DNA of 64,000 nt from Membranipora membranacea (lineage: Eukaryota; Bryozoa; Gymnolaemata; Cheilostomatida; Membraniporidae). A model generated the notes under the pieces. The model did no database searches and was not told the DNA's origin. It saw only the letters and a program-made list of their open reading frames with translations. Positions 128 through 64,000 of this stretch are shown here, piece after piece. The position numbers and the translations under genes were made by a program. Every line of letters begins with the position of its first letter. Position 1 is the stretch's first letter. The stretch lies in NCBI GenBank assembly GCA_914767715.1, contig OU612067.1, positions 22,046,162-22,110,161 of the forward strand. Direction: 5' to 3'.

Positions 128-340
128 CTCTGTAGCTGATCTTTGTCGGAGATCCTCTTTAGCCTGAGAGCTCTCAGATTAGGTACCAGCTGATCTAGAT
201 TAGGAGGGATCTCGCCGCGAATAACCATGTGTGAGATCTGACGGTCACAGGTAGCCGCTTCAAGTTCTGATAAGGTCATGGATCTGAACTCTTTATCTTT
301 TATGTTATCAATTCCAGGCATTACCATACCGTACCATACT
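128..340 (-). CDS. N-terminal exon of a second ROCO-type gene (partial)
   Basis: This 213-bp open exon is nearly identical to the exon at 60240-60452 that starts the recognisable part of the ROCO-caspase gene. On the minus strand it follows an acceptor ending TTTACAG and ends in AG before GTAGGT, giving phase 2 at both ends, the same phase as every LRR exon at 55.9-59.1 kb. It encodes a leucine-rich stretch (segments [14 protein letters not shown] and [12 protein letters not shown]). The first Met codons in the frame are near 325-327. The rest of this gene must lie left of base 1. It is inferred to be a tandem paralogue; expression is not shown by the sequence. Confidence 0.6.
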
Positions 341-2190: not shown

Positions 2191-2192
2191 CC

Positions 2193-2836: not shown

Positions 2837-3123
2837 TGACTCCATTCCAAGGGAAGCAATTTATATGGATGCCTGCATGGAAAGGTGTTGAATCTGCAGA
2901 AACTTCCAGTAATCCGAACCAGCCTGAGTGCGGTATCACGTGCCAGCAGCAAGAATATTGGGCTTATGATTGAGAATAAGAGATGGTCGATGGTACAATC
3001 ATAGAGTTATCCCCCCTAGAGCTATTACTCACAGACTAATAACATTGCGTTTCCGGTGGAGGTGTGTGCACAGTGTCGGCCATATTGGATTTGGGGAGCA
3101 ACACATAAACATTCCATTGTGCT

Positions 3124-3796: not shown

Positions 3797-3985
3797 ATTG
3801 TGCTCTATAGTTGTGGTACAAAATTCATGTATATCTCTAGGGTTTTTTCAATAGATCTCAACATCTGATGAACCCAGGCATAGATTGAAGAACCCAGGTA
3901 AAGTACAAAGATCTCTTAGCTGTATTTCATGATTTTGAACTCATTTTGAGTAAAATATATGGATATCTCAGTGAAGCATGGTCTT

Positions 3986-31600: not shown

Positions 31601-34600
31601 GGATAATTCCTAAGACGGTGTGATGCGGGCCAGTTAAGATTAAACCTTCACCATACCAAAATTAGTTGAATTTATGGTCAAATTATGATTTTGCATTTGC
31701 GGTGAGATCTTGCCGCCTTATCAACATTGTTTCTGATCAGAGACTCACCAATGGTTAAGTAGGAATTTGTCACCAGAGATTAACCGTTGAAGATTGTTTC
31801 ACCTATCCATGCTTTTGCAGTTAGGGCCGAGGAGATAATGGCCTGTAATGAGAACTTGTTTCTGAAGCTACGAGGCACTAAACTGGACAAGAAGGATACG
31901 TTCGGGAAGTCTGATCCATTTCTAGTCTTTTACAAATCCAACGAAGATCAGAGGTAAGCCAGCCCGGACTTTACAAGGGATCACCCTTAAATTAAAGTAG
32001 ATGAGAAAAGGAGATATTGTGTGTTAATGATTGCCCTAAAAACTTTTGTGAATTTGGGATTTATCTCCTGCCAGTTTTAATTTTTACCCGTATTTACCTC
32101 AACTTTTAGGTCTGAGACTAACCAGAAATCGAAAGTCCATTTATGCAAGTTTTGAATAACTATGGAGTCAAATTGTAGGTTCATCCATATTTGTAAATTT
32201 TAGCCTTTTTCAAATACATCTCTTGAAAAAGAGTACGCAATTCATGGCGTGCCCGTTCATGGCGTTCAAGTCTTCATGGCGGGCAAGTGGAGATTGCCGA
32301 TTCCATAACTGACGATGACTGAAGTGTGGTTGCAAGACTTGGTGGCCCATTTGTAACTATGAGTAGGACACACCTTAGCTGTGGGATGCACACCTCCGTC
32401 ACATACTTGGATATTGAGGGTCTCCTTACAACAACGAATTGCACCAGAGTATACAATAAACTTACTCAGCAAATCTACCTTGAAATAAAACAAGTATGCG
32501 TTTAGACAGAAGTGAAGTATTTGTGCTATTTCAAACACAAGGAAACAGTAAGGCCTTGTGCTTGAAGTTGCACAAACATTGCAACACGTTTATCTAAATA
32601 TAAGTTGTATTGTCTGTATCACTAATCATGGTGTCGGTGTAAACTGGGCCGACTTCCTTCTTATGAATCAGAAAGGCAGTAAACATTCAATGTATAAACA
32701 TAAATGAACATGATCATTACCCAGAAAATTGGATAATTGGTCCGGTTTGAATATGGGCGTTAGGTTATCACCAAGTTTGATTGAGATCGTTTTATAAATT
32801 AGAGGCTTTAGATAAATATAATGGCAAAGGAAATGAACATGAATAGGACGCAGGGTGGGGAGGGGGGTTTATTAGATACTTGGTCAGGTTTGAATAAAGG
32901 CATTTACTATAGATAGGGTTTGACTGTTTACTATAGGGTGTGACTATTGTTGTGAGATCATTGAATAAATTAGAGGCTTGAGATACATATAATGGCTAAA
33001 GAATTGCATGTGCTTTTGCTTTTAAATCTAAGATATTTGAACTTAGATCAAAAGGAAAATACCCCCCCCCCCCTCCTCAAAACTAATTTATATTTGCTTA
33101 AAAGATCATTTGAGTTTCAGTGTTGCACCAGATAGACTTGAGCGTTCATAAAGCAAAGTCAAACTTACTATGCTGTAGGTGTAGCATATAGTGCTAGGTA
33201 ACTCAGTAGTGCGTCCATCTCTCAAGATCGTTTTGGCCAACAAGTATATTTATGTACATGTCATACTGCTATTATATACCCTATAGGAGTTTAGTTTTCG
33301 CGGCATTTAGGATTCGCTTTTCCGTTGTTGCCTAGGTTGCGAAATTTAGTGTATCTTAAATTAAACTCACTCACTATAGTTTCATAAACAATGTACAATT
33401 ATACAGGAATACACCTTATCCAAGCATTCAAGCTAGTCTGGTGTAGTGGTCTAAGTGTCTGCCTTGCAATCAGAAGGAGATTTATGCCCTTGGTTCTAAT
33501 CCCAGCTTGGACGTTTTTTTTTAATTTTCACTAGTAAGCCTACTAGCGAAATTAAGTACTAGTGAAATTTAGTAACAGGTCCAGATAGCGGAATTAAGCT
33601 CTAGCTAGATTAAACTCCTATAGGGTAACTTACATAATATTTGTGTGTAAAACTTTGATAAAATGATTGATTGATTGGTCGAACAATTGATCTATATTGA
33701 TTGATTGATTAGCTATCACAAAGATTAAATGTTGCAAATAAAGGATGCATATACTTTATCATAAAAGGAGTTTGCTACTGGAGTATTGAACTTGCATTTT
33801 AAAAAGTATCTCATTGACCATAATGCACATTTACCTCATGATCCATATTCGCCTTAGGAAACAGTCTACTCAAGAAATCTACTCGCGCACTTCCTGTTTG
33901 TTTGCTAACTTACCTATATATTGATGTATTTTTTTTTGTAGTTTCACAGCTGTACATAAGACAGAAGTGATTAAGAACACACTGGACCCCACATGGAGGG
34001 AGATGATGGTCAGTGTAGGCACTTTCTGTAATGGAGATAAAGCTAGGACACTCAAAGTAGAATGTTATGACTGGGATAGTGACGGTAGGTGCGTTTGTTT
34101 CTTATTACTTTATATTTGTCGACCAAGATACATTTAAAATGTATCATGTGAGGTCGGAAGGTACAGAAAAAGTGTTCCAATGCTGCAATATATCGTATAG
34201 CATCATCATAGTAAATCACAAAATCACGGTATTTGAAAAAAAGAGATTATAAAAGAGACATGTCTACTAACATCAGTTGTCATCTACTGGCCATATTTGA
34301 AGAAGAGGTTTTTTAATCTCTACACTTTGGTCAGGTATTTGTTTATTCCTCTTCCAGATTATAGTAATTGAATCACAATTGATGGTTTGCCAATATGGTG
34401 AACTGTGGTATGTTGCCTTGAAAGATTTCAGCGACAACTTAAGATTTGATATTGTTTTTTTTTCAAATACCCGACCGGATATCTTCTTCCTACTTGTTGT
34501 TTGCGTCACAGAGCACTTTAGGTAAATACTCAGTGAAAAATCCGTCATAACAACACCCTCCAGTTAAAGTGCAAATAAACCGCTAATAGACTGTTTCTGA

Positions 34601-37600
34601 GCGTAAATTTTAGCCTATTTTCGGAGCTGTCCTCCCTCCATTTATCTGGTCGATCGTTTTCCTTGCTGTCTAAATGCTTAGTATGATAATTTTAGTGATT
34701 GTATGCCGCTCAGTGTTTTGTATGTGGGTTTCTTATCAAATTTGAAGCAGGTAATCAGAGCTCAGAAAACTGTCTATAAGATGAGAGACTGATAACCTCG
34801 GCACAAAAATCGAACAAAGTTTACCTAAAACTGATCGTAGGTTCTGCGGGTAGTTTCGTTTTATGTCTGAATTAAGATTGGTTCTTGATGCCCTACATTT
34901 AGTTGCCTCTCTTAGGGCAAAGCACAGTACAAGCTAGTAGTATTACAGTAGGACCATTGCCCCGGCTGGGGGGGGAGGGGGTCGGACGGTGGGCAAGAGT
35001 CTGGGGGGCTCAGACTACCATTGAGTATAAGCAATAGCAAAATATCAAATATGGCTACATGTTATTAATTCCCTTCCTGTGTGGAACTTTTGATGGATCT
35101 ACAATTCCACATATTGAGAGAACACTGGACTTCTCCATAATAAGTTGACTTGTAGCTCCATCCTCCTATCCGATCTCAATATGTATCACTAATCTATGTA
35201 TTGTATTTATCTCCCTCAGCCACGACTTGATAGGCGTTTTCCTCACCAACATCAAGGAGTTAGCGAAGCACAGTGTAAACTTTGAACTTGTGAACCCAAA
35301 GAAGACCAAGAAGAAGAAATATGTCAACTCCGGTGAGGTAAATATTTCAGCATCCATATGAGTCTAAAAACTGGCAGCATAAGGTCATCAGTTCTACAAA
35401 TCATATACAAACTAGTTCAGGAGTATTTAATTCACGAGCACGCATAATGATCAGCTACAATCTTAACAGATATGACTATATGGATGTAGTCTAAGTGCTC
35501 AGACAGCTCCATTGCAAGTTGGTGGCATTACATTATCAACCACCCATTTGCCCTCAAGAGTTGTCCGCTCCTTGTTTTGCGTGGTTGATAATGTAATGCC
35601 ACTAACTCGCAACGGAGCCGTCTGAGCACTTAGAATACATCCATATAGTCATGTCTGTTAAGACTGTAGCTGATCATTATGCAGGCTTAAGAATTAAATA
35701 TTATTCAAGTAGGTTGTATAGAATTTGTAGAACTGTTGACCTGATGCTGTCAGTTTGGTGTTGATTTTCATACACGCCTGCAGACGATGTCCCCTCTTGC
35801 TCGCTATTTTCCCATGTTTACCCGGGATTAAATTTTAAAATGATTGCAAAGTCTTCTTCCGGTTCAGCCAACTACTCGGCTTGACTTTGACACAAGAAAA
35901 TGACACAAAAATGCCCATTCGATGTAAATCTTACATAATAAGTTGATATGGAGTATGGGCCTTACTGACTATTACTGGTTGTGTAACATTGAGAGAGTTT
36001 TTGATAATTGTCAGTGAAAATTTCATCACCAACCTCTATTTTCTCTTCCATTCTGCTTGTAGATACATGTAGACCATGCCAGGGTAGAGAAAAGTTACAC
36101 ATCTTTAGACTACATACAATCTGGGTAAGATAATCATACTATTGGCTCCATCTCAACATCAAATATATAATCAGTATTGTGTACCCAAAGACCAAAACAT
36201 GTTATAGTCAGGCAGTAACTTATGATAAAGTTGTGTCAGATTTGCATGGTAGAAATAAGTTCTACTTGACATGAATTACTGATGGTGGAAAAAGTGCCTC
36301 CCATAAGGGAAGGTAACTCTCACTCTCTGCATTATGAGGTCACTATGATCAGGATATGCAATACAAGAGTGGATCATCATTTTACATAATTTGTTATAAA
36401 CTGCGTTGTTATATGGAGATTTGTAATAATCCACCATATGTGTTAAACAAGTTTGAGTTATGCACTCAATTGGAATTTTTTCTGTTGCTCAAACCTGAGG
36501 GTCTGTTTTACCAAGAATTTTTACAAGTGTAATTCACACAAGCTTGTTTTTCGGATACACGGGCTTGTCAATCAAGAAACCAAATTATACCTAGGGTGGT
36601 AAGGTAACCCTCCTGTCTTCTGTACAATAGATGAGAAGATATTTTTTTCATATCTACGTGGTGATCGCAATTAAATGTCATCTTTCTTACTTAGAAAATA
36701 ATTGTGGCGAATATTATGTCATATTTTTCAAAAGGCTCCAAAGGAGCTCAAAACGCTGAAGTTTCATTATAACCGTTGAGCTTTGCTTTGAAGTTATGAG
36801 TCGGCCTTTGATATAATCGCCCTCCCCTATATAATAAATAGAGAATTCGCAAACTCTTGAAGTTGTCCTCTCCCAACATGTGAAATCATCACGTATTACG
36901 TTGTTTGTCACTTTGGACACCATCTTGATTCGGAGTAGCATCCTCCTGATAATTGGAAAGGCGACCTCATATGGATGGTTTCCCGGAATCAAGAATTTGT
37001 TGCTTTTTGAATCCTGTGACATCCCTGGGGAGATTTCGAAACCTCTCTGTTTAATTGAGATTGACCCTTCTGAAACACAAGGACAACATCTGTAGTTCAG
37101 CAGATAATCATTGCTATTATACTCATCACTTGTTTTACATTTTCAGATTTCAGCTCAATTTCACAGTGGCGATAGATTTCACCCGCTCTAACGGTAAACC
37201 ATCGAGTCCTCAGTCGTTACATTACCTCGGTGCTCAGATGAACCAGTGTGTTATAGCCCTGAGCTCAGTTGGTACGATAGTACAAGATTATTTACAGGTA
37301 TGAATCTAACATTTATTGTATGAGTTGGATAGCTGATTGGTCAACCATCTAGCTGACTGATGTTGATATCCGATCAATAACTGATCACCCGTCGCACTTT
37401 GGAAACCACAGTTTTTAAAGAGTTGTTTTAGCTTGCTCGTGTTGCTAACAGTGGCTTTCTGTTAGGGGTTGATAAAGAAATGCTGATAACAACAACCCTG
37501 GCAAAGTTTATGGACCATGACTAGAATTATCCAATGAGCCACCTGAAAAATTGAAAATACCCCCCCCCCCCAAAAACTAAGTTATATTTGCTTAGTCAAA

Positions 37601-40600
37601 CTTACTATGCTGTAGGTGTAGCATATAATGCTAGGTAACTCAGTAGTACGTCCATCTCTGAAGATCGGTTTGGCCAACAAAGTATATTTATGTACATGTC
37701 ATACTGCTATTATATAACTTACATATTTGTGTGTAAAACTTTGATAAAATGATTGATTGATTGGTCGATTGATTGATCGATATTAATTGATTGATTAGCT
37801 ACCACAAAGATTAAATGTTGCAAGTAAAGGATGCATATACTTTATCATAAAAGGAGCTTGCTACTGGAGTATTGAACTTGCATTATAAAAAGTATCTCAT
37901 TGACCATAATGCACATTTACCTCATGATCCATATTCGCCTTAGGAAACAGTCTACTCAAGAAATCTACTCGTGCACTTCCTGTTTGTTTGCTAACTTACC
38001 TATATATTGATGTATTTTTTTTTGTAGTTTCACAGCTGTACATAAGACAGAAGTGATTAAGAACACACTGGACCCCACATGGAGGGAGATGATGGTCAGT
38101 GTAGGCACTTTCTGTAATGGAGATAAAGCTAGGACACTCAAAGTAGAATGTTATGACTGGGATACTGACGGAAGGTGCGTTTGTTTCTTATTACTTTATA
38201 TTTGTCGACCGAGATACATTTAAAATGTATCGTGTGAGGTCGGAAGGTACAGAAAAGTGTTCCAATGCTGCAATATATCGTATTGCATCATCATAGTAAA
38301 TCACAAAATCACGGTATTTGAAAAAAAAAGACACTTCATGTACATTATCATTATTATTGAGATTATAAAAAAGACATGTCTACTAACATCAGTTTTCATC
38401 TACCGGCCATATTTGAAGAAGAGGTTGTTTAATCTCTACACTTTGGTCAGGAATTCGTAAATTCCTCTTCCAGATTATAGTAATTCAATCACAATTGATG
38501 GTTTGCCAATATGGTGAACTGAAGTATGTTGCCTTGAAAGATTTCAGCGACAAGTTTAGATTTGATATTGTTTTTTTTTCAAATACCCGACCAGATTACT
38601 TCTTCCTACTTGTTGCTTGCGTCACAGAGTACTATTGGTAAATACTCAGTGAAAAATCCGTCATTACAACACCCTCCAGTTAAAGTACAAATAAACCGCT
38701 AATACACTGTTTCTGAGCGTAAATTTTAGCCTACTTTTGGAGCTGTCCTCTCTCCATTTCGCTGATCAATTGTTTTCCTTGCTGTCTAAATTCTTAGTAT
38801 GATAATTTTAGTGATTGTATTCCGCTCAGTGTTTTGTATGTGGTTTTCTTATCAAATTTGCAGCAGGTAATAGCATCTATCATTTACTTTTGATAAGTTC
38901 AACCTGTATGTATGGGCCTCATTAAGAGCGAAGAATCAGTAAGTCTAGTATGCTACTGCCATCGTTCTGCACTCTGCAGTTTCAACTGATTGACCCTCAT
39001 ATTAATATCTTAATACAATAAGATGAGAGACTGATAACCTCGTCGCAAAACTCGAATAGAGTATACCTTGAACTGATTGTAGGTGCTGCGGGTAGTTTGG
39101 TTTTATGTTTGAATTAAGATTGGCTCTTGATGCCTTACATTTAGTTGCCTCTCTTAGGGCAAAGCACAGTACAAACTAGTAGTATTACAGTAGGACCATT
39201 GCCCCGGTTGGGGGGGAGGGGGTCGGACGGTGGGCAAGAGTCTGGGGGGCTCAGACTACCATTGAGTATAAGCAATAGTAAAATATCAAATATGGCTACA
39301 TGTTATTAATTCCCTTCCTGTGTGTAAATTTTGATGGATCTACAATTCCACATATTGTGAGGACACTGGACTTCTCCGTAATACGTTGACTTGTAGCTCC
39401 ATCCTCCTGTCATATCTCGATAATCTCACTAATCTATGTATTGCGTTTGTTTCCCTCAGCCACGACTTGATAGGCGTCTTCCTCACCAACGTCAACGAGT
39501 TAGCAAAGCACAGCGTAAACTTTGAACTTGTGAACCCAAAGAAGACCAAGAAGAAGAAATATGTCAACTTTGGTGTGGTAAGATTTCAGCGTCCATATTA
39601 GTCTACGTGCTCAGACGGCTCTGTTGCATGTTTGTTTGGTGTTGATTTTCGTACATGCCTGCAGACGATGTCCCCTCTTGCTCGCTATTTTCCCACGTTT
39701 ACCCGGGATAAAATTTTAAAATGCTTGCAAAGTCCTCTTCCGGTTCAACCAACTACTCGGTTTGACTTTGACACAACAAGATGACACAAAAATGCCTATT
39801 CGATGCCATCAGTAAATCTTACATAATATGTTTGATATGGAGTATGGGCCTTACTGACTATTACCGAGTATGGGACTTACTGAATATTACCGTCAGATCG
39901 CTGTATCCTCAATAATAAGATATTATGTCCATGTCATTGAGGATGCAGCAACCTGACGGTAATATTAAAGATATTGAACTAACACTGTTTGTGTAACATT
40001 GAGAGAGTTTTTGATATTTGTCAGTGAAAATTTCATCACCAACCTCTATTTTCTCTTCCATTCTGCTTGTAGATACATGTAGATCATGCCAGGGTCGAGT
40101 AAAGTTACACATTTTTAGACTACATACAATCTGGGTAAGATAATCATACTACTGGCTCCATCTCAACATCAAATATATAATCATTGAGGTATGCCCAAAG
40201 ACCAAAACATGTTATAGCCAGGCAGTAACTTATGATAAAGTTGTGTGAGATTTGCATGGTAAAAATAAGTTCTACTTGACTTGAATTACTGATGGTGGAA
40301 AAAGTGCCTCCCATAAGGGAAGGTAACTCTCATTCTCTGCATTATGAGGTCACTATGATCAGGATATGCAATACCAGAGTGGATCATCATTTCACATAAT
40401 TTGTTATAAAATGCGTTGTTATATGGAGATTTGTAATAATCCATCATATGTGTTAAACAAGTTGGAGTTATGCACTCAGTTGGAATTTTTTCTGTTGCTC
40501 AAACCTGAGGGTCTGTTTTACCAAGAATTTTTACATGTGTAATTCACACAAGCTTGTTTTTCGGATACGCGGGCTTGTCAATCAAGAAACCAAATTATAC

Positions 40601-41305
40601 CTAGGCTGGTAAGGTAACCCTCCTGTCTTCTGTACAATAGATGAGAAGACATTTTTTCGTATCTATGTGTTCATCGCAATTAAATGTCATCTTTCTTACT
40701 TAGAAAATAATTCTGGCGAATATTATGTCATATTTTTCAAAAGGCTCCAAAGGAACTCAAAACGCTGAAGTTTCATTATAACCGTTGAGCTTTGCTTTGA
40801 GGTTATGAGTCGGCCTTTGATATAATCGCCCTCCCCTATATAATAAATAGAAAATTCGCAAACTCTTGAAGTTGTCCTCTCCCAACATATGAAATCATCA
40901 CGTTTTACATTGTTTGTCACTTTGGACACCATCTTGATTCGGAGTAGCATCCTCCTGACAATGGGAAAGGCGACCTCATATGGATGGTTTCCCGGAATCA
41001 AGAATTTGTTGCTTTTTGAATCCTGTGACATCCCTGGGGAGATTTTGAAACCTCTCTGTTTAATTGAGATTGACCCTTCTGAAACACAAGGACAACATCT
41101 GTAGTCCAGCAGATAATCATTGCTATTATACTCATCACTTGTTTTACATTTTCAGAGTTCAGCTCAATTTCACAGTGGCGATAGATATCACCGGCTCTAA
41201 CGGTAAACCATCGAGTCCTCAGTCGTTTCATTACCTCGGTGCCCAGATGAACCAGTATGTTACAGCCCTGAGCTCCGTTGGTACGATAGTACAAGTTTAT
41301 GACAG
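28662..41305 (+). CDS. Copine gene, 5-prime half intact, A-domain core not found
   Basis: Copines bind membrane phospholipid in a calcium-dependent way through two C2 domains followed by a von Willebrand A-like domain. Exons are 28662-28735 (start MAVPNFQLG), 29117-29204, 29779-29882, 30756-30795, 31350-31430, 31821-31953, 33942-34088, 35220-35337, 36063-36124 and 37147-37297; phases agree throughout. C2A shows [17 protein letters not shown] and [11 protein letters not shown]2B shows [27 protein letters not shown] and [10 protein letters not shown], with calcium-binding Asp residues kept. The last exon starts the A domain ([17 protein letters not shown]). The rest of that domain, over 200 residues in the family, was not found. 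Exon 1 uses a GC donor. A second copy of the last four exons follows at 38028-41305. About 332 codons are accounted for against 530-590 in full copines. Either further exons are too diverged for me to see or the gene is truncated. Confidence 0.9.
33279..33625. mobile_element. TA-flanked MITE carrying a tRNA-Ala-like module
   Basis: The ends CCCTATAGGAGTTTAGTTT and its near-inverse at 33605-33625 bound 347 bp. The second copine unit at 37708-37725 has the empty site, TATATAACTTACAT, so the insertion duplicated only the dinucleotide TA, as Tc1/mariner-type elements do. A tRNA-like sequence with a trailing T-run sits inside. No transposase is encoded. Confidence 0.88.
33436..33512 (+). tRNA. tRNA-Ala(TGC)-like sequence inside a MITE
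   Basis: GTCTGGTGTAGTGGTCTAAG gives a D-arm/A-box; the anticodon loop CTTGCAA would place TGC at the anticodon; GGTTCTAATCCC is a slightly degraded B-box. It is followed by GTTTTTTTTT, a polymerase III terminator. The acceptor stem pairs through G-U bonds and one anticodon-stem pair is broken. It is probably a tRNA-derived relic that may still be transcribed. Confidence 0.45.
35366..35756. mobile_element. Long foldback insertion in copine intron (unit 1 only)
   Basis: Two arms of about 170 bp, for example GTGGCATTACATTATCAACC and its inverse, pair around a turn of about 50 bases at 35540-35575. Unit 2 keeps only a small similar piece near 39603-39640 (GTGCTCAGACGGCTC), so the element was either inserted into unit 1 or deleted from unit 2. 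Confidence 0.8.
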
Positions 41306-41645
41306 GTATGAATCTAACATGACTTATTGTCTAATTGGTATGAGCTGACAAGCTGCTTGGGAGTGATATCCCTTCTGTTTCATCCCACCCGATCTTGTGT
41401 TTTTTTTTATTGTATGAGTTGGATAGCTGGTTGGTCAACCATCTAGCTGACTGATGTTGATATTCCGTCAATAACTCCTCACCCGTCGCACTTTGGAAAC
41501 CACAGTTTTTAAAGAGTTGTTTTAGCTTGCTCATGTTGCTAACAGTGGCTTTCTGTTAGGGGTTGATAAAGAAATGCTGATAACTACAACCCTGGCAAAG
41601 TTTATGCACTATGACTAGAATTATTCAATGAACCACCTGAAAAAT
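37554..41645 (+). pseudogene. Copine internal tandem duplication, unit 2
   Basis: Second copy of four copine exons: 38028-38174, 39460-39577, 40073-40134 and 41156-41305. The third has a stop TAA at 40100-40102 where unit 1 has AAA. The last exon of unit 1 ends in phase 0, while the first exon of unit 2 must be entered in phase 2, so the units cannot be read in series; unit 2 could only serve as a mutually exclusive alternative and then would hit the stop. A small foldback at about 39859-39985 is specific to this unit. Confidence 0.85.
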
Positions 41646-51287: not shown

Positions 51288-51716
51288 TTATGTTGCCTGT
51301 GGGTAGCCAAGCTTTTCTAGGAGACTCTCTTTTGTATGCTTGGATCTTTGTAGAGGACCTGTACTGCTCACTACAGGAGGAAGAACAAGGTTCTTCTGAA
51401 GTGTATTCCGTGATTCTGGAGACTGACTATACTGGTCTAGTTCATTCTTCTTCATGTCCATGACAGCATTTGTAACCATCTCATGTATGGTTGTCTTCCC
51501 ATCAGCTTTAGCAAACTCTCTGGCTATGGCTCCAGTAAAAGCTCCTCTGACAGCCATCTCTCCAACCACTGTTGACATCAGTAGCAGTGTATGAGGCCTC
51601 TTTAGTACAACATGGTTCACCTCATCTGGATTAGCTTCCTTTGCATCAGAATGGCTTGTGGAAGGTCCAGTTGCTTGTGGAGGGTTGTAATATTGGCAGG
51701 CCTGAATTATGGCAAT
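51288..51716 (-). CDS. Caspase exon: active-site Cys and small subunit
   Basis: Opens directly after an acceptor TTGTAG with [14 protein letters not shown], so the catalytic Cys is seven codons in. A Ser/Thr/Asp-containing linker ([18 protein letters not shown]) with candidate Asp cleavage sites separates it from the p10-like part, which has the conserved Arg-Gly of the substrate pocket (MAVRGAFTG), an amphipathic helix ([17 protein letters not shown]) and the terminal strand QKNLVLPP. The exon is 143 codons including the TAA stop. The usual QACRG glycine is not kept. Confidence 0.82.
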   Translation of the reverse strand: MAIIQACQYYNPPQATGPSTSHSDAKEANPDEVNHVVLKRPHTLLLMSTVVGEMAVRGAFTGAIAREFAKADGKTTIHEMVTNAVMDMKKNELDQYSQSPESRNTLQKNLVLPPVVSSTGPLQRSKHTKESLLEKLGYPQAT

Positions 51717-54700
51717 CTACAATGTGTAATATATTATATCGATTGACTACGAATATTTTGAAAGTATGATTTAGTGCAGTGGCGTATATTAGCACTCACG
51801 GCCCACGTATTCCGTGAGTGGCTGAATAGCTCAGTGTGTAGAGCGTCCGCCTAATAATCATTGTTAATAAGATTGTTGTGGGTTCGAATCCCATCAAGGT
51901 CAGCTTGGGTGCTTTATAACTGGAGCATTTTTACAGTAATCTTCTACTGCTATTGAGTTGTTTTCTGAAAGTACCCAACAGCTCAGTGAGCCATTGAAAT
52001 ACCTCTCTGCTTGCACTATTTTGCTACCGATATGCAAAAATTTCCGTGGTGGGAGGGCGCTTAAGCGCCCCTCCCACACCCTCCCCGCCACGCCTACGGC
52101 GTGTGGTTCGGGCTGCGCCCGATTATTATGCTCATCTCTGAAAATTCAGTGAGTGAAATATTTTAGAATATACGGCCCTTATTTAGTGTGTAACAAGTTG
52201 TAACAAGTGTAGTTACAATTTCATTTTGTTTGATAGTCAACAGATGGTGGTTATTCGAATGAGAAGTTATCACATCATCAGCACATGCCACATATTGATC
52301 CATTTTTTCGATCATCAGCATGTTTGCTGCCGTGGAGTATTGAAGAATGAATACATACCATTGGGACTTGCTCAGACAACTTATTATCTAGTATCTGTAG
52401 AACATCAGTGATGGGGATATGCGAGCCATTGCAGCCACACAGCATTCCGGCTTTTCCATGGGTCATGATGGAGATGACAAGAAGGGAGATTCCTTGGGAT
52501 GGAAGCACATCAATTCTGTGACGCAGCTCTAATGCACTTTTCCATTCTATCTTCTGAGTCTTGCATCTTGCTGTGACTAGGCTGTCAGCCATTTTATTAG
52601 CTTCATCTTCAGCATCAGGTCTATTCTCGGTGTTGAACAGCACCAGACCGTACTTCTTCATATGATCTTGATGATGTGGTATGATGTACTGGTCACTCTG
52701 AACAAATAGTCGATTGATGTCGTTAGCGTCTAGTGGATGTTTCTCTATTAGCTCCTTCAGTATCTGTGACTTGTCACCTGAGTAAAATTAGAATTCAAGT
52801 CAAAGAAATATAGACAACCTGCAGCTTTGCATTCTAGTGTATATATAGCATTCTACAATAATGTAGATTTTAATATTTAAATGAGATACATATGTGATTG
52901 TGACATATAAACTCATATTTATGACGAGTGGTTGTCATCATAAGTATGCATTGATGTACCCAAAAAATATCTCTGCTAGCTGTGCAACTTGGTGACACAT
53001 TACAGTCATGTCAGTTTTGTACAGAAGATTGTAGTTGTAGCACATGACCACTGACTTCAGATATAATGATAATCATAGCACATATATCACTTGAATCAAA
53101 TTAGCAGACTTTTGGCTAGATCAAATTTTGTCCATTTGCTTGATTTTCAAGTTTCTCCTATTTATGGTCACACTGAGAGGATCACACATAATATGTATAA
53201 TGTAATATAAAAATGTAATACAACAACTTTTAATGGATAAAAACTGATTAAACATGTATTTAGCTTTATAATTTTTAATTAAAATTAATTCGGAAACTTA
53301 CTTGATAAGACAAGCTTTGATATGTAGTCTTGAAGTTCAGTATGACCAGCCTCTGTTATGCTTGAACCTAAAATATTCGCAAAATTTCATTGATAATAAA
53401 ATGAGTTTTCCATGCACACAAAAAGCAGTGTCTGGGAGGGCTGCTGAAGAGGGGGTTCAAGGTAGGTAAGCAGCCGTAGTGGCTGGAGCACAAGGAGATG
53501 GTGCTTCAAGTTCATTTTATTAAAGCAATTTGCCTTTGCCATGTCAATAAAGATACTTTACACTATGATAATACATATTTTTATGACTTTTACATACATG
53601 GTTTCATGAGTGGTTGTGGAACAAGTCGGTTCTCTTTGTTCTGCACTTCCTTTCTGCAGACAACCTTCTCATATCCAGTATAACTGCCATCTTGCTCTCT
53701 AGAACTATCTGGAACTGTCAAATTGTACCAATCAGGATCAACAGCTGTTTGTGGGTCCAGTTTGTTAGTGAGCAGGCAGTGAGAACAGTAGAATACACTC
53801 TCATAACGAACTCCTTTCCACACAGATTTGAGTTCGGTGATGAGCTTTCTCAGGGTCGAAATCTGCTCTTCTCTTGCTTCACAGAGTCTTTCCTGAGGTG
53901 TCAGAGTGATTAGAGTGACACGCTTTTCACCTGCATTGTGAAGGAGGTGTTCGATTATCCCATTACTCTTGGTCACAGTAGCACCATTCCCGCCTGCCTC
54001 TGGAAAGTTTGAAGGATTAGAATTCATGTCTAGATAGGCGGCAGTGATGAGGGAGAAGATGTAGCTGGGTATGGGTAGACCGCGTAAATGAAGATCAACC
54101 TTCAACGGTATCAGTTGATTGTACACTTCAGGGGCTGTTATTGTTCGGCTGGCAAAATACGGTACAATGTATTTCTGATTGCTTATTGCAGCATTTGAAC
54201 CGCATAGATGCACAAGATGAAATGTTCTTAGGATTTCGATGGACACATTGGCAGGGAGTTGGGATTCTTGCTCTAAGAGGTGTAGAAGCAGAGGTGCATC
54301 CATCACTCCTGTTTCGTTGAATGTGTCTATCATCTCTTTGTATCTGCTCATTTCTATGGTTTTTCCGTCAAGAGGGAATGGAATAAATTTATCTAGCCTT
54401 TTGTACCAGGATTCCTCCAGTGTGTGGTTGTATAGGACTTCTATCACACTTGTTATGACTTTTGAGCGATGGAATATAAAGTTTGATAGCTTGTCTAGTC
54501 TCCTGAACCACATTATTTGACTTATTTCATGAAGATACTCGAGAGTGACATGTCCTTTATCATCAGGAAATTCTTTCTCTATTTCAGACAGGGTGAGCAT
54601 GGGCTTGTCAGAGTGTTGGACTAGCTTCTGTAGTATTCGATACCAGCTACCGGGAATCTCAGTGATTAATCCTGCACCAGCTGCATTGATAGCATTTTTC

Positions 54701-57700
54701 AGCTTGTCGATTTCAGGCTGTCCGGATGTCTTCGAGAAGTGATGGATGTCACAAGACCTTAACAGGACTTCTGAGGTGTTGGCGAAGCTGGTCATGGTAA
54801 AGATCGGGTTAGTGTCATTTTTCAAGTTCTGATTGACATTATTTTCTGCTTGGATTATACGTTGGCGCAATTTCTCAGTGACATTGAGCAGTTGTTGAGT
54901 TGTCTGTTCAACCTTAGCAGGTATACTGTCACAGTGAGTGAGGACTACTACAGGTCTCTTCAGTTGAGGACACGCAATGTAGAGGTGGGATAACCACTCA
55001 ATACAAAGCTCTTGACAAGCAGATTCCTCACCTTTCTCTGAAGCTAATCTATCAAACTCAGCAATGTCTATCACTAGCAGCGGCACACATTTCTCTTAAA
55101 AGTCAGTCTATAGGAAAAGTGATGGATCTTCTGGCCTCCGAAGTCAGTAAAGAGTATTTTTGAATTCTCATCAGTCTCCACCTCGCTCAATTCAAAGACT
55201 TTAGTGGCAGCATCCAATTTCCCCTCATCAGAATCGCGTTGTGTCAGCACCCTTTTGTTTGCTTGCACACTGTTAACAAGGCTTGTTTTACCAGCTCTGC
55301 TTTTCCCTATAACTGTGACAGGTATAAGTCTCTGATTACTGGCTTTCTCAATATGGAGGTCATGAATGTACTTTCTCACAGCTTCTACACCTTGCGTACA
55401 GACACCTAGTGGTGGAGATGTTAGAGAATCACCGTTATCACACACTACTTCTTTTAATGTTGTGATACTGAATAAGCTCTCGGGGATGGTTGTGAGAGAT
55501 CTGTTAGACGCGATAACCAAAGACCTCAGATTAATCAGCTGGCTGATGCTGCAAAAGAACAGAAGATAAAGTGTATTGTGTGAGAAGGTAAAAGTGGTCA
55601 TCTGGTAAGTATCTTCTTCAGAGGGGATAATGCTGGGAAGAGAGGGATTTGGCAAAGTATGCTGAATCGTTGGCCAAGTAGAACCTTCCTACAACTTCTT
55701 TATAGAAATAAAGGTGAATTGGATATAAGGTCCTTGAGTAAGACTAACAATGAGACGAAAACTCACTGTCGCGACTTAAAATAAATCATGGTGGTAATGA
55801 CTTATTCAAACTTATATTCAAATTTTATCATAAATAAGCTGCATACTTGTAATGTATAAATTACCCACCTTTCTGGTAATGTTGATAGATCACAGTATGA
55901 CACATCTGAGACCTTCAATGACCTCATCATACCAATACTATCAGGTAATGTGTGTAGATTCTTATTACCTAACACATCTAACGTCTCTAGAGCAGTCAGT
56001 GAGCCGATACTATAATATATATAAAGATAAGTAAGACTAACAATGAGACGAAAACTCACTGTCGCAACTTAAAATAAATCATGGTGGTAATGACTTATTC
56101 AAACTTATATTCCAATTTTATCATAAATAAGCTGCATACTTATAATGTATAAATTACCCACCTCTCTGGTAATGCTGATAGATCACAGTACCGTACAGTT
56201 AAACTCTTTAATGACCTCATCATGCCTATACTATCAGGTAATGTGTGTATATTCTTATTACCTAACACATCTAACGTCTCTAGAGCAGTCAGTGAGCCGA
56301 TACTATAATATGTATAAAGATAAATAAGACTAACGATGAGAAAATAACTCATTGTCACATATTAAAATAAATCATGGTGGTAATGATTTATTTTAAACTT
56401 TAATTTAAATTTCATCATAAATAAGCTGCATACTTATAATGTATAAATTACCCGCCTTTCTGGTAATGCTGATAGATCACAGCCTGACACATTTAGGGTC
56501 TTCAATGACCTCATCATACCAATACTATCAGGTAATGTGTGTAGATTCTTATTCTCTGACACATCTAACGTCTCTAGAGCAGTCAGTGAGCCGATACTAT
56601 AATATATATAAAGATAAGTAAGACTAACAATGAGACGAAAACTCACTGTCGCAACTTAAAATAAATCATGGTGGTAATGACTTATTCAAACTTATATTCC
56701 AATTTTATCATAAATAAGCTGCATACTTATAATGTATAAATTACCCACCTCTCTGGTAATGCTGATAGATCACAGTACTGCACAGTTAAACTCTTTAATG
56801 ACCTCATCATACCTATACTATCAGGTAATGTGTGTAGATTCTTATTACCGTACACATCTAACTTCTCTAGAACTGTCAGTGAGCAAAGACTGTAATATAC
56901 AAAAATAAAGGTGAGGGTAACTAGTAGAATATATCTCAGTTAAAATCTTCAATGACCTCATCATACCAATACTATCTGGTAATGTGTAGATTCTTATTAC
57001 CTGACACATTTAACTTCTCTAGAGCAGTCAGTGAGCCGATACTATAATATATATAAAGATAAGTAAGACTAACAATGAGACGAAAACTCACTGTCGCAAC
57101 TTAAAATAAATCATGTTGGTAATGACTTATTCAAACTTATATTCCAATTTTATCATAAATAAGCTGCATACTTATAATGTATAAATTACCCACCTCTCTG
57201 GTAATGCTGATAGATCACAGTACTGCACAGTTAAACTCTTTAATGACCTCATCATACCTATACTATCAGGTAATGTGTGTAGATTCTTATTACCGTACAC
57301 ATTTAACGTCTCTAGAGCTGTCAGTGAGCCGATACTATAATATATATAAAGATAAGTAAGACTAACAATGAGAAGAAAACTCACTGTCGCAACTTATAAT
57401 AAATCATGGTGGTAATGACTTATTCAAACTTATATTCCAATTTTATCATAAATAAGCTGCATACTTATAATATATAAATTACACACCTTTCTGGTAATGC
57501 TGATAGACCACAGCGTGACACATTTAGGGTCTTCAGTGACCTCATCATACCAATACCATCAGGTAATGTGTGTAGATTCTTATTCCATGACACATTTAAC
57601 GTCTCTAGAGCAGTCAGTGAGCCGATACTATAATATATAAAGATAAGTAAGACTAATAATGAGAAGAAAACTCACTGTCGCAACTTAAAATAAATCATGG

Positions 57701-60452
57701 TGGTAATGACTTATTCAAACTTATATTCAAATTTTATCATAAATAAGCTGCATACTTGTAATGTATAAATTACCCACCTTTCTGGTAATGTTGATAGATC
57801 ACAGTATGACACATCTAAGACCTTCAATGACCTCATCATACCAATACTATCAGGTAATGTGTGTAGATTCTTATTACCTAACACATCTAACGTCTCTAGA
57901 GCAGTCAGTGAGCCGATACTATAATATATATAAAGATAAGTAAGACTAACAATGAGACGAAAACTCACTGTCGCAACTTAAAATAAATCATGGTGGTAAT
58001 GACTTATTCAAACTTATATTCCAATTTTATCATAAATAAGCTGCATACTTATAATGTATAAATTACCCACCTCTCTGGTAATGCTGATAGATCACAGTAC
58101 CGTACAGTTAAACTCTTTAATGACCTCATCATGCCTATACTATCAGGTAATGTGTGTATATTCTTATTACCTAACACATCTAACGTCTCTAGAGCAGTCA
58201 GTGAGCCGATACTATAATATGTATAAAGATAAATAAGACTAACGATGAGAAAATAACTCATTGTCACATATTAAAATAAATCATGGTGGTAATGATTTAT
58301 TTTAAACTTTAATTTAAATTTCGTCATAAATAAGCTGCATACTTATAATGTATAAATTACCCACCTCTCTGGTAATGCTGATAGATCACAGTACTGCACA
58401 GTTAAACTCTTTAATGACCTCATCATACCTATACTATCAGGTAATGTGTGTAGATTCTTATTACCGTACACATTTAACGTCTCTAGAGCTGTCAGTGAGC
58501 CGATACTATAATATATATAAAGATAAGTAAGACTAACAATGAGAAGAAAACTCACTGTCGCAACTTATAATAAATCATGGTGGTAATGACTTATTCAAAC
58601 TTATATTCCAATTTTATCATAAATAAGCTGCATACTTATAATATATAAATTACACACCTTTCTGGTAATGCTGATAGACCACAGCGTGACACATTTAGGG
58701 TCTTCAGTGACCTCATCATACCAATACCATCAGGTAATGTGTGTAGATTCTTATTCCATGACACATTTAACGTCTCTAGAGCAGTCAGTGAGCCGATACT
58801 ATAATATATAAAGATAAGTAAGATTAATAATGAGAAGAAAACTCACTGTCGCAACTTAAAATAAATCATGGTGGTAATGACTTATTCAAACTTATATTCA
58901 AATTTTATCATAAATAAGCTGCATACTTATAATGTATAAATTACCCACCTTTCTGGTAATGTTGATAGATCACAGTATGACACATATAAGACCTTCAATG
59001 ACCTCATCATACCAATACTATCAGGTAATGTGTGTAGATTCTTATTACCTGACACATTTAACTCCTCTAGAGCAGTCAGTGAGCCGATACTATAATATAT
59101 AATAATAAAGATAAATAAGACTAACGATGAGAAGAAAACTCACCGTCGCAACTTAAAATAAATCATGGTGGTAATGACTTATTCAAAAAGACTGTAATAT
59201 ATAAAAATAAAGGTTAGGGTAACTAGTAGAATATATCGCATAATCACAATTTATATTAAATTATCCCTTCTTCATTTACGGTGTGTAGAGAAAATGCAAA
59301 GCTTAGATGCCAGAGAGCAGTGCGCATTCTATGAAATCAATACACAAAACAAATATCGTACCACGTGTAGTGTGCTCATGTCAGAGCACAGCAGCACTTT
59401 GTGAAAACAAAGCGAACGTTGAGTAAGTGTGCTCATGTCAGTGAGTGCAGAGTTAATTTTGGAAAATAAGCTTTATAAATATCTACAAGATATTATCTTA
59501 TAATGGGAATAATCACTTGTCAGTGCCGGGCGAAATAAATATAAATATCGATATACATTTCCCGAATGAAATATCTGCATCGAGTACATCGAACCAAGGA
59601 GTTAAAGACAATGAGATGCAACAAAGACAGCCTCCTTGATTTTGATGAACTACCCTATTTTAAACAACTATAAAGCTTAACTTCAGAGTTTTCTCCCCTT
59701 GTAAGGAAGAGAAACAATTACCGACAGTGTGAAATTATGACATAAATAATATTGCCGGATACATTGTGAGAGATTATCTCAGTATTTGGAATTTTGAGTT
59801 GATAATACAGCTAGTGGAAAATTGGTCAAGAGTGAGGCGGTGTAATGGTTCAGTGACTTCAAGACACAGCTGTCAGATCCGCAACCATGGAGGCTCGCAC
59901 CAAATGTCAGATTCTAGCCAAACACTCCTATAAAACTCGGACACTGTATCACACAATACTTATGCAAGGCATAATGAGTTTGTCGTTGACGGTATCGATA
60001 CATTTTCCAAATTTCAATTTCCCACCAAGCCCTCTTCTCATCTCTTGTTATCCCAGCAAGACATTTCCCATCAGGATGTTGCTCGCTATTCCAACAAGAC
60101 ATTTTCCCACTAACCCTTATCCCACTATTACTTCTTTCAAAGGTCGAGCCTTCAACTCAATGCTGGTAGCTCTTCTAATTTTATAGTAATGTTTGATGTG
60201 AGACTACCCCACAAACCAAATGCTTACAAAAATACCTACCTCTGTAGCTGATCTTTGTCGGAGATCCTCTTTAGCCTGAGAGCTCTCAGATTAGGTACCA
60301 GCTGATCTAGATTAGGAGGGATATCGCCGCGAATAACCATGTGTGAGATCTGACGGTCACAGGTAGCCGCTTCAAGTTCTGATAAGGTCATGGATCTGAA
60401 CTCTTTATCTTTTATGTTATCAATTCCAGGCATTACCATACCGTACCATACT
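51288..60452 (-). CDS. LRR-Roc-COR (ROCO) GTPase fused to a caspase
   Basis: Exons from the 5-prime side are 60240-60452, then LRR exons between 59089 and 55869, then 53598-55548, 53302-53367, 52359-52777 and 51288-51716. All junction phases agree. Domain order is: leucine-rich N-terminus, LRRs, Roc GTPase (P-loop [19 protein letters not shown]), COR domain with a YCSHCL segment, a short linker, and a caspase. The caspase large subunit has [10 protein letters not shown] (His codon 52458-52460) and the next exon opens [10 protein letters not shown] (Cys codon 51696-51698), equivalent to the QAC site. The small-subunit part has [20 protein letters not shown] and ends near [15 protein letters not shown] proteins are GTP-dependent scaffolds and caspases cleave after Asp, so GTP-regulated protease activation is the natural inference. 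One 1-bp slip near 55086 breaks the frame inside Roc. The true start exon upstream of 60452 is uncertain. Confidence 0.85.
51777..52180. mobile_element. hAT-like MITE carrying a tRNA-like module (copy 2)
   Basis: Inverted relative to 10483-10897 and highly similar along its length. It is flanked by the 8-bp duplication ATTTAGTG (51769-51776 and 52181-52188). It sits in the intron between the caspase His exon and Cys exon. The tRNA-like part is at 51819-51903 and the three GC-rich palindromes at about 52055-52122 are preserved. The right terminus has drifted (ends CGGCCCTT rather than CGCCCCTG). Confidence 0.92.
51819..51903 (+). tRNA. tRNA-like sequence inside hAT-like MITE (copy 2)
   Basis: Same D-arm and T-arm boxes as at 10771-10854, with one difference in the extended anticodon region. 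It ends in GGTCAGCTTGGG with no T-run, so termination would occur further downstream if it were transcribed. Its strand is opposite to the host gene. Confidence 0.45.
52359..52777 (-). CDS. Caspase exon: large subunit with catalytic His
   Basis: Begins [20 protein letters not shown], a helical linker, then the caspase fold starts at [14 protein letters not shown]. The block [17 protein letters not shown] matches the caspase His-Gly loop, and [15 protein letters not shown] the helix that follows. It ends in phase 0 at GTATGT and splices to the active-site Cys exon. Confidence 0.82.
53302..53367 (-). CDS. Linker exon between COR and caspase
   Basis: A 66-bp exon with acceptor ATTTTAG and donor GTAAGT, phase 1 on both sides, encoding [17 protein letters not shown] and a short hydrophobic end. 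The phases join the COR exon and the caspase exon without a stop, which is the main proof that the two domains belong to one transcript. No known domain is seen. Confidence 0.7.
53598..55548 (-). CDS. Roc-COR exon (one frameshift)
   Basis: Single large exon of about 650 codons. It starts with one more LRR ([20 protein letters not shown]), then Roc with [33 protein letters not shown], and after the slip [12 protein letters not shown] and VVVLTHCDS. The COR part follows with [20 protein letters not shown] and ends near [10 protein letters not shown]. The two open frames (55655-55074 and 55086-53590) overlap by only 13 bases, exactly where a conserved Roc strand should be continuous, so a single base is missing or two are extra. 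Confidence 0.85.
55869..59089 (-). repeat. Array of eleven intact LRR exons plus one decayed
   Basis: Each intact exon is exactly 141 bp and encodes two 23-24-residue LRRs with the frame [20 protein letters not shown] and [17 protein letters not shown]. Coordinates: 55869-56009, 56162-56302, 56456-56596, 56749-56889, 57194-57334, 57487-57627, 57778-57918, 58071-58211, 58365-58505, 58658-58798 and 58949-59089. A decayed copy is at about 56945-57041. All introns are phase 2, so any number of exons stays in frame. Introns of about 150-160 bp are nearly as conserved as the exons. Exon 56456-56596 has a GC donor. The plus-strand 60-residue ORFs across it are antisense shadows. Confidence 0.93.
59090..60239. 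other. Intron between N-terminal exon and LRR array
   Basis: AT-rich with an LRR-intron-like remnant near 59110-59230. The part from 60113 on belongs to the long direct repeat, whose left boundary cannot be fixed because the left copy starts at the window edge. No separate gene is seen; the plus-strand ORF near 59887-60186 is not supported. Confidence 0.5.
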
Positions 60453-62234
60453 CTGTAAACTAAAAAAATTCAAACAGAAAATACAAACTAAACCGAATAT
60501 GATGTTTATTTTGAGAGATCTTCAGCTCTCACAGCTTGGACTAGGATGAGCCAGGAGACTCAATACAATAAGGGGGGGGGGGGGCAGAAGCTATGGGATC
60601 TCAAGTCCTCACAGCTCACACTCAGGCAGAGATTGACAGCAGACGCTATTAAGACTAAGACACCCAACTAAGACTCTTGAGGAATCACCACCCTCGTCTA
60701 ATCGCCTTTATATTCTAAAAATCCTACATGAAAAGGCTCCTTTGTTTTGGTTTTTCGCTGTTAAATTATCTTGATTGAGGGATAAGCAAAACCCTATCTC
60801 CTCTTTTTGAGAGAAACGAGGGTTTAACACAATTGATGTAAAATTACATTATTTAAATTGGACGATAAGTCAAAACCCACTTTCCGTTTTTTCAAGAGTT
60901 TTTGCAAGAGTTTTTTAGTCTTATTTTTAAATAAATTGATTCTTGAGCAAACGCATTCTACGTTATTATGCCCATGCCTACCCACAGTGATGAAACCGGG
61001 TAAACATCAAGCTTGGGCAGTTCTGGTTGGAGAGCCGATGGAGCATGTATTTCTAGTATTGCAAAGATTGCTTTGTTTTGGTAAATTACTGTTTAGTGTT
61101 TAATTTAATTTACTATTCAAGAATAAAATTCATTTGAATATGGAAAACTCATCTAAACCATCTGTTATTAGTAATTTGAGTATGCACCTTTACGTAACAA
61201 AGTTCGAAAAACAAATGTGCTGGATAAATTTAAGTAGCTAAACAAAACACCTTTTGCACCGAGTTGCATCCTTGTTGAACCCACAAACGTCGCAACCATC
61301 ACAACGTCGTAATCTAGCGTTCCACTAACGTCGCAATCCCAAAAACGTTGCAACGAAAGGTTTTTATAACGTCGCAAACCCAGTAATGTCGCAATTTTTA
61401 AATGTCGCTAATGCTCAAACCCACTAACGTTGCAAATATCGCAACTCAATAAAAATGCCGAGTTTTCTTCTCATTGGATGCAAATTGGTGATTAAAATTT
61501 GCTGCTGATAGGAGCATACAGACTTCAAAAGACTGTGGGAAGTTGAAATATTGTGCAAATTGCTATAAGAGAAAAATTTTCACTTCCTAGGATCATGATA
61601 AAAATTATTACCTTAGAAATAATTACTGCCGCCGATTATTGGATGCTCATAAATATTGGATGATTACGAAACTAGATTATCAATACTCAAACTTGATGAA
61701 CTGAATGTTCATTTCCGGATCTCCAGATGTTTCCGTTTAGCTAGAGTTTCCCCATGCCGACCTTTTCTTGTTTAAGACAATCAATCATTTAATATAACTA
61801 CCCTACTTGATAACAATATTTTTAAGGAATTCACCTGATACATTATGATATTTGTTTTATGCACGATCTTATATTTTAATTGTCTTGATCAGCAAATAAA
61901 TCGAGATTAATATTATTATCATAAATATCAAGAAACAACTGAGGCAGATATCAGCAAACATGCCTAGCTTGAAATATACCGTCATGTTTGATATAGGCTA
62001 TGCTGAAAGTTTTCAAGATGTAGTACACTGCTTGCTATATTTATAATGGAAAAATTGTTACACCAGTTATGCATGAACCACTTCATCTTCACTTTCCACC
62101 ATAACATTGGGAAGTAGACAACAGTAAAAATATGAGTTATCCTGTTTTATTTTGTGAGGGAACAACTCTCATAAGTGAAAATGGTTTCCTTATCCGAGCA
62201 TCATCGATTGCTACAATGTAACAGATCAGATTTT

Positions 62235-62887
62235 TTTCATGGGTAGAGGCAGGACACATGGTGACCATATCGTGATCCAGGCACTTGCAGACATGCTGAG
62301 TATGCAAATACTCATTTAAACGTCTACTAAAAACTCAGATATTTTGATTCGACCTGATGGTCCAGGCTTATTAGACTTAGACCCAAGTGAGCCATATATC
62401 GTCCTCCCTAAATTACCAAAAAAACAATGGAGAACACTATGTAGCACTTGGACAAGATTTGACCGATGTTGTTATTGTCATTACAAGGTCACCGCAGATG
62501 AGACTTCAGACAGAGAGTAAAATTCATGTGACTCCTTTAACAAGGGTGCAGTCAACAGAATCACCCCGAAGCTCCTTTGCAGCTATGGTTACATCACCTG
62601 TACAGGCCTCAGAAGACATGACAGAAAACTTGTTTGACCTTCCAGTGGAAATTTTACCAGTGATATTTACTATGGTTGTCAACAATAACTTAAAACATAC
62701 AAAAACACAAATATATCAGATGTTCCTGGACATACAAGAATTGCTTGGGTTTGTGTTAGCGTATGTAACAAGACCTGTCCCATCCTTATTATCATTACCA
62801 ATTCATTGTTCAACCGTGTCTTTCTTGAGATATCATCACTTTCTATATGTAAAGGAAAATGGGTGGGCTAAACTTTTTGATCGATAA
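62235..62887 (+). pseudogene. Decayed ORF, right copy
   Basis: Counterpart of 2193-2836. It retains DIVIQALADMLSM and the distal tail, but an extra A near 62410 shifts the frame before the EHYVAL block, so the long downstream frame now starts differently. The loss of frame in one copy and the stop in both argue for a non-functional relic. Confidence 0.4.
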
Positions 62888-63174
62888 TGACTCCATTCCA
62901 ATGGAAGCAATTCATATGGATGCCTGCATGGAAAGGTGTTGAATCTGCGGAAACTTCCAGTAATCCGAATCAGCCTGAGTGCGGTATCACGTGCCAGCAG
63001 CAAGAATATTGGGCTTATGATTGAGAATAAGAGATGGTCGATGGTACAATCATAGAGTTATCCCCACTAGAGCTATTACTCACAGACTAATAACATTGCG
63101 TTTCCGGTGGAGGTGTGTGCACAGTGTCGGCCATATCGGATTTGGGGAGCAACACATAAACATTCCATTGTGCT

Positions 63175-63875
63175 CATGGGCCCCTAGGACTTACATGTCT
63201 TCACTTTGCCAATGTCCACTATCAACCACACAAAAAAAACCAAACAGGGTAAGACACACAAAAAATATTTTTTACAACCTACCTTGAAATCTATCACACT
63301 AACTCAGCCCTCCTTCCTCTTTCATTTGCTTCAGGTTTGAAGGTTCTAGCATAAACAGAGCTGACTTTATGGACCAGAGAAAAAAATTGTTCGACAAAAT
63401 ATGAGTAGGCTGAAATGGCTGCATGAGTGTCGACATCCCCACATGATTATTGTACTTTTTTTTTATTTCACTAAATTGGTTCTTTTTACACTCATATATT
63501 ATGAGTTCTAAATTATATTCATTAATTTTTAAGCTTCTAATAAGCTATGAGTATATGAGTGTAAAAAGAACCAATTTAGTGGAATAAAAAAAAAGTACAA
63601 TAATCATGTGGGGATGTCAACACTCATGCAGCCATTTCAGCCTACTCAGATTTTGTGGAACAATTTTTTTCTCTGGTCCATAAAGTCAGCTCCATTTACG
63701 CTAGAAACTTCAAACCTGAAGCAAATGAAAGAGGAAGGAGGGCTGAGTTAGTGTGAGAGATTTCAAGGTAGGCTGTAAAAAAATTTATTTTTGTGTCTTA
63801 CCCTTTTTGGTGTTTTTTGGGTGGTTGATAGTGGACATTGGCAAAGTAAAGACATATAAGTCCCAGGGGCCCATG
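63175..63875. mobile_element. Foldback element, right copy
   Basis: Counterpart of 3124-3796 with the same ATTGTGCT flanks (63167-63174 and 63876-63883), so the insertion predates the segmental duplication. It is slightly longer (701 bp), mainly through an extra stretch in the right arm (63787-63815). Confidence 0.9.
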
Positions 63876-64000
63876 ATTGTGCTTTGTAGTTGTGGTACAA
63901 AATTCATGGATATCTCTAGAGTTTTTTCAATAGATCTCAACATCTGTTGAACCCAGGCATAGATTGAAGAACCCAGGTAAAGTACAAAGATCTCTTAGCT

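What the first reader, a model, noticed from the sequence alone, without database searches (positions are those of the whole stretch)
51288..60452. A ROCO GTPase whose reading frame runs into a complete-looking caspase
Seen: LRRs, Roc motifs, COR, a linker exon and then a caspase with His (52458-52460) and Cys (51696-51698) in their usual contexts, joined by phase-compatible splice sites. Known: ROCO proteins commonly end in kinase, death or other domains; caspases usually carry CARD, DED or death domains as recruiters. Inferred: a GTP-switched, LRR-ligand-gated caspase, which would be an unusual way to trigger cell death or immunity. I do not recall this architecture as a standard one, but cannot search.
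Basis: partly seen in the sequence, partly recalled or inferred. Interest (0 to 1): 0.92.

Follow-up and report, generated by a model that had tools for sequence, protein, structure and literature searches.

The report
GTPase immune receptor fused to caspase
An animal gene appears to join a leucine-rich-repeat receptor with a GTP switch of the Parkinson-kinase (ROCO) family directly to a caspase, the protease type that triggers cell death; relatives support the pairing, but this copy has a break in its reading frame.

The parts
60240..60439 (-). first coding exon (start at M 60439-60437 inferred), ends AG|gtaggt, phase 2
   Evidence: near-identical copy at 128-327
55869..59089 (-). array of 11 LRR exons of 141 nt, entering and leaving in phase 2 (59089-58949, 58798-58658, 58505-58365, 58211-58071, 57918-57778, 57627-57487, 57334-57194, 56889-56749, 56596-56456 with GC donor, 56302-56162, 56009-55869), plus a remnant from 57041 to about 56938
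53598..55548 (-). last LRR + Roc + COR exon, 1951 nt, phase 2 in, donor in phase 1; one nucleotide short relative to relatives
   Evidence: fold of homologue P0019
55281..55307 (-). Roc P-loop GKSRAGKTS
55131..55145 (-). Roc switch II DFGGQ
55090..55097 (-). site of the frame break (LTFK / EKCVPLL)
53302..53367 (-). linker exon, 66 nt, phase 1-1 (COR to p20 keeps frame without it)
52359..52777 (-). caspase p20 exon, phase 1 in, phase 0 out; in-frame stop at 52790-52788 and no ATG between it and the acceptor
52458..52460 (-). catalytic His (MTHGKAG)
52620..52622 (-). Arg proposed for the S1 pocket (ENRPDA); Arg also in P0014
   Evidence: assignment from recalled caspase pattern
51288..51716 (-). 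caspase Cys + intersubunit linker + p10 exon, to the stop codon
51696..51698 (-). catalytic Cys (QACQY)
51624..51647 (-). stretch of the p20-p10 linker bounded by two Asp (51647-51645, 51626-51624), candidate processing sites
   Evidence: role inferred
51546..51548 (-). Arg aligned with caspase-8 Arg (MAVRG / VSYRN), proposed S1 residue
   Evidence: weak stretch of the alignment
128..327 (-). second copy of exon 1 with its donor, one residue changed; probable start of a paralogue lying beyond the window

Best explanation
One gene for a multidomain receptor, LRR - Roc GTPase - COR - caspase, probably of a multi-copy family, in an unidentified animal. Shown by sequence: the domains, the splice phases, exon ends kept in relatives, a homologous pair that shares source and contig length, and LRR cassettes whose most variable sites sit on the concave face. 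Inferred: the LRR array binds a ligand; binding shifts the dimer and GTP/GDP state of Roc-COR; this brings two caspase domains together, which self-activate by proximity and are cut at Asp in the p20-p10 linker, starting cell death or inflammation without a CARD, DED or death-domain adaptor. The sequenced copy carries a one-nucleotide frame break and may be a disabled or wrongly assembled member.
Against: Frame break in Roc. Tyr for Gly in QACxG. No transcript seen and contig 8216 not read, so the link rests on equal source and length, for 1 pair among the 39 proteins. Read-through of the COR donor gives a stop at once (PCM*), AATAAA lies at 53521, and neither AATAAA nor ATTAAA was found from the caspase stop down to 50500. 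Solved caspases match only weakly by sequence: caspase-2 0.043 and caspase-8 0.087, behind an unrelated flagellar protein at 0.032 and with TNF chains at 0.4-1 in the same list; caspase-8 0.057 with a two-row profile. Model of the p20 exon poor (pLDDT 64); best fold hit caspase-2 at E 9.7e-03, tied with an unrelated synthetase. P0036 is annotated without a caspase. P0012 (94%) matches only the later part of the p20 exon.
Confidence: 0.6

Rival explanations
1. The fusion is real, but this copy is a pseudogene or non-functional allele, with intact members elsewhere (compatible with the best explanation for the family).
For: One-nucleotide frame break in Roc, an LRR remnant and a GC donor; relatives at 92% (P0037) and 94% (P0012) and an exon 1 copy at 128-327 show further copies or close species.
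Against: About 500 codons of COR and 282 of caspase stay open after the break, with splice sites present; a single indel is also a common assembly error. P0037 begins after the break, so it does not tell.
Confidence: 0.4
2. Two neighbouring genes, a ROCO protein ending at PCM* and a separate caspase, joined on paper.
For: Stop right after the COR donor, AATAAA at 53521 and no such signal seen after the caspase stop; P0036 annotated without a caspase.
Against: Donor-like residues in 26 of 28 relatives; p20 exon has a stop just upstream, no ATG before its acceptor, and a first Met that is not conserved; equal source and contig length of P0014 and P0019; AATAAA occurs 0.69 times per kb on this strand anyway.
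Confidence: 0.12
3. The caspase part is a pseudo-protease that regulates other caspases, as cFLIP does.
For: Tyr in place of Gly in QACxG; weak similarity to solved caspases.
Against: His, Cys and the Gln of QAC are present and two Arg fit the S1 pocket; the p20 relatives keep His and the first Arg.
Confidence: 0.2

Closest known systems
Bacterial LRR-AP-GTPase (Roc)-COR proteins with C-terminal effectors including caspase (PMC8195603, passages read)
   Same: Same domain order: rapidly evolving N-terminal LRRs, Roc, COR, and caspase among at least 24 domains found at the C-terminus.
   Different: Prokaryotic; here a spliced gene with an array of LRR exon cassettes. No sequence comparison with the bacterial proteins was made.
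Amphioxus LRR-caspase and TNFR-caspase hybrids (PMC2575513, passages read)
   Same: Receptor part joined directly to a caspase, proposed there as a link from recognition to apoptosis.
   Different: The word Roc does not occur in that text; those proteins keep QACxG, here QACQY.
Trichoplax ROCO proteins (PMC4104024, figure legend and passages read)
   Same: Early animal ROCO proteins; CARD and TIR are among the domains named in the figure legend.
   Different: CARD would recruit a caspase; here the caspase itself is in the chain. The figure was not seen.
MFHAS1-type ROCO (P0036, Watersipora subatra; simplest LRR-Roc-COR group)
   Same: LRR-Roc-COR, 32% identical to the window's Roc-COR over 99%; the chain goes on after PLVYPC with a short further stretch.
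   Different: Annotated without a caspase.
Aplysia ROCO-TIR proteins (PMC9334734, passages read)
   Same: Roc-COR joined to an immune signalling domain in an invertebrate.
   Different: TIR, not caspase.
Caspase-8 and caspase-2
   Same: His and Cys contexts; caspase-8 also reads QACQ.
   Different: Recruited through DED or CARD prodomains (recalled); QACxG kept; weak sequence similarity.

Membership tests
ROCO (Roc-COR) | Roc GTPase with P-loop and switch II | tested here: met
   motifs; Pfam Roc 26.5 bits on the read-through, 0.5 below cut-off, P0001 and P0019 above it; 3dpu 3.5e-15
ROCO (Roc-COR) | COR directly after Roc | tested here: met
ROCO (Roc-COR) | intact frame through Roc-COR in this copy | tested here: not met
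   one nucleotide short; assembly error not excluded. This lowers the claim for this copy, not for the family
ROCO (Roc-COR) | GTP binding and dimerisation | not testable with these tools
   none
Caspase (peptidase C14) | C14 domain | tested here: met
   Pfam 54.5 bits against 21.4; halves in order; fold model of the p20 exon alone inconclusive
Caspase (peptidase C14) | catalytic His and Cys | tested here: met
Caspase (peptidase C14) | S1 Arg, Gln, Arg for Asp at P1 | tested here: inconclusive
   Gln of QAC present; p10 Arg opposite caspase-8 Arg in a low-confidence stretch; p20 Arg assigned from recall, kept in P0014
Caspase (peptidase C14) | Gly of the QACxG pentapeptide | tested here: not met
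   QACQY; motif as stated in PMC2575513. Filed as a caspase-like (C14) domain; activity not claimed as shown
Caspase (peptidase C14) | proteolysis after Asp | not testable with these tools
   none
LRRK1/LRRK2 | kinase after COR | tested here: not met
   only C14 found in the part from late Roc to the stop, E up to 0.1
NLR / APAF1 | NACHT or NB-ARC | tested here: not met
   not among the Pfam matches; Roc instead

The most novel reading that the evidence does not exclude
An animal family of one-chain death receptors: a tandem, diversifying set of ROCO GTPases whose exchangeable LRR exon cassettes vary at the ligand face and whose C-terminus is its own caspase, so that sensing, switching and killing need no death-fold adaptor; the animal counterpart of the bacterial LRR-Roc-COR-caspase proteins.
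Probability: 0.4. Interest if true: 0.82.

Novelty: new variant of a known kind. Interest (0 to 1): 0.63.

Why it matters
Animal initiator caspases are normally recruited through CARD, DED or death domains. A caspase wired to a ROCO GTPase would give the LRRK2 family's nucleotide switch an output that is easy to measure, would tie animal cell death to bacterial LRR-Roc-COR conflict systems, and, with its LRR cassettes, would offer an invertebrate receptor that can change specificity by exon duplication.

Tried and rejected
Two-gene artefact: examined by donor residues, phases, start codons and contig lengths, judged unlikely. Death-fold domain in the linker: none among the Pfam matches up to E 0.1 on the 303-residue linker-caspase piece, where C14 was the only family. 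Relatives as DNA: the search for related loci found none in viral contigs (74 pattern matches, none confirmed) or genome contigs (54, none). A dispersed repeat of the window (10543-10578, 52085-52120) used as a tag for the organism: no match in either collection. The organism stays unknown; introns and the caspase type make it an animal by inference; the only named relative is a bryozoan.

Structure of the p20 exon: pLDDT 64, best hits caspase-2 at E about 0.01 among unrelated folds; not used as proof. The spliced caspase was not folded.

Literature: ten searches in open-licence PMC papers; some listings were cut (30 of 45, 2 of 3, 12 of 14). No animal Roc-COR-caspase protein was seen in the listings or the passages read. 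Subscription papers and annotated genome databases were not searched, so absence from print is not shown. Passages only were read of PMC8195603, PMC7159879, PMC6337361, PMC9334734, PMC2575513, PMC4104024, PMC6321704 and PMC13229695; the last two held nothing to the point; all other papers were seen as listings only.

Full report
What is there. On the minus strand of 60439-51288 lies an intron-rich gene. Exon 1 (60439-60240) ends in phase 2. Eleven LRR exons of 141 nt follow, each entering and leaving in phase 2, so that any number of them keeps the frame; 10 were found by one pattern, the eleventh by hand. Exon 55548-53598 holds the last LRR, Roc and COR and leaves in phase 1. A 66-nt linker exon (53367-53302, phase 1-1), the p20 exon (52777-52359, phase 1 to 0) and the Cys/p10 exon (51716-51288, stop) complete it. 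COR spliced straight to p20 also keeps frame, so the fusion does not hang on the linker.

The frame break. Within Roc the frame changes at about 55095: one frame reads ...SYRLTFK, the next [14 protein letters not shown]..., and the exon (1951 nt) is one nucleotide short of what its phases require. All 11 relatives aligned read on in frame here. Either this copy is disabled or the assembly is wrong; nothing here decides.

The caspase. Among solved structures the sequence matches are weak: caspase-2 at 0.043 and caspase-8 at 0.087, behind an unrelated flagellar protein at 0.032; with a two-row profile caspase-8 leads at 0.057. These alignments set His and QAC in register, and the p10 Arg opposite that of caspase-8 in a low-confidence stretch. 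The p20 Arg of the S1 pocket is my assignment from recalled caspases; it is kept in P0014. The Gly of QACxG is Tyr here. Two Asp lie between Cys and p10 (51647-51645, 51626-51624); a role as cutting sites is inferred. A model of the p20 exon alone was poor and its fold hits inconclusive.

One gene or two. First, relatives: two searches gave 36 Roc-COR relatives and another gave 3 caspase-exon relatives. Except P0036 they come from ena, lgn or jgi without organism names; I take them as single exons of unannotated contigs. Twenty-nine of the 36 reach the motif PxPL..PC (or PF) at the end of the exon. In 28, all but the annotated P0036, the next residue is E in 15, K in 9, M in 2, R in 1, and one ORF ends there; the ORFs end 0 to 68 residues later. 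TGT followed by GAG, AAG or ATG reads C-E, C-K, C-M, as a phase-1 donor T|GTGAG, T|GTAAG, T|GTATG would; the DNA was not seen. Second, the p20 exon has an in-frame stop at 52790-52788, no ATG between it and the acceptor, and a first Met that is Val in P0014. Third, P0014 is on a jgi contig of 8216 bases; I then searched Roc-COR again, and P0019 came up on a jgi contig of 8216 bases, 57% identical. The other two caspase hits lie on contigs of about 1 kb, too short for both domains; of the six jgi Roc-COR rows one has this length. I could not read that contig. Against: read-through of the COR donor gives a stop at once, AATAAA lies 77 bases further on, and neither AATAAA nor ATTAAA was seen between the caspase stop and 50500, so a short ROCO form remains possible.

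The LRR cassettes. The eleven exons hold 8 distinct sequences; of ten units (exon plus intron) nine were compared and are 86-100% alike, two pairs at 100%. Among the 8 sequences 7 of 7 sites with three or more residues fall on the ten x positions of LxxLxLxxN (P 1.9e-06); of all 16 variable sites 8 do (P 0.0012). pN is 0.307 there against 0.028 elsewhere, pS 0.25 against 0.13. The concave positions were set from the recalled LRR pattern, and duplicated exons are not independent samples, so the P values are a guide. The pattern is what ligand-binding repeats under diversification show.

A family. Window 1-2098 repeats 60113-62223 at 97% and 2185-3921 repeats 62231-64000 at 96%; exon 1 with its donor recurs at 327-128 with one changed residue. 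So another copy probably begins at the left edge, or two haplotypes were laid in a row. Close relatives exist in other records: P0037 (92%, starting after the break) and P0012 (94%, matching only the later part of the p20 exon).

Compared with the known. Passages of PMC6337361 divide Roco proteins into LRR-Roc-COR, those with kinases, and DAPK1; the word caspase is absent. PMC4104024 (figure legend) names CARD and TIR among domains of Trichoplax ROCO proteins. PMC8195603 (passages) describes bacterial LRR-AP-GTPase-COR proteins with caspase among at least 24 C-terminal domains. PMC2575513 (passages) describes LRR-caspase and TNFR-caspase genes in amphioxus. PMC9334734 (passages) describes ROCO-TIR proteins in Aplysia. 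The present gene joins these ideas: new variant, not a new kind.

Mechanism. Most likely the LRR part binds a ligand, Roc-COR changes nucleotide and dimer state, and paired caspase domains self-activate. Only the anatomy is shown. I put 0.6 on this reading and 0.12 on two genes, and regard the state of this copy as open.

Noticed in passing
1-3921 and 60113-64000: Segmental repeat at 96-97%, both including exon 1 of the ROCO-caspase gene (copy at 128-327): tandem paralogue or two haplotypes in a row.
   Followed up: partly
57041 to about 56938: LRR exon remnant with a 2-nt deletion, next to exon 56889-56749 whose acceptor side differs from the other LRR exons.
   Followed up: partly
56455-56454: GC instead of GT after LRR exon 56596-56456.
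   Followed up: no
7091-10351: P-element-like transposase in pieces (Pfam Tnp_P_element and TNP-like domains).
   Followed up: partly
10543-10578 and 52085-52120: Dispersed GC-rich repeat, one copy inside the p20-p10 intron.
   Followed up: partly
35968-37336 and 39978-41348: Direct repeat, 95% alike, each with a 142-residue ORF without Pfam match.
   Followed up: no
53521: AATAAA on the minus strand 77 bases after the COR donor; could end a short ROCO transcript.
   Followed up: partly
33425-33514: tRNA-Gly (gcc) predicted by ARAGORN.
   Followed up: no
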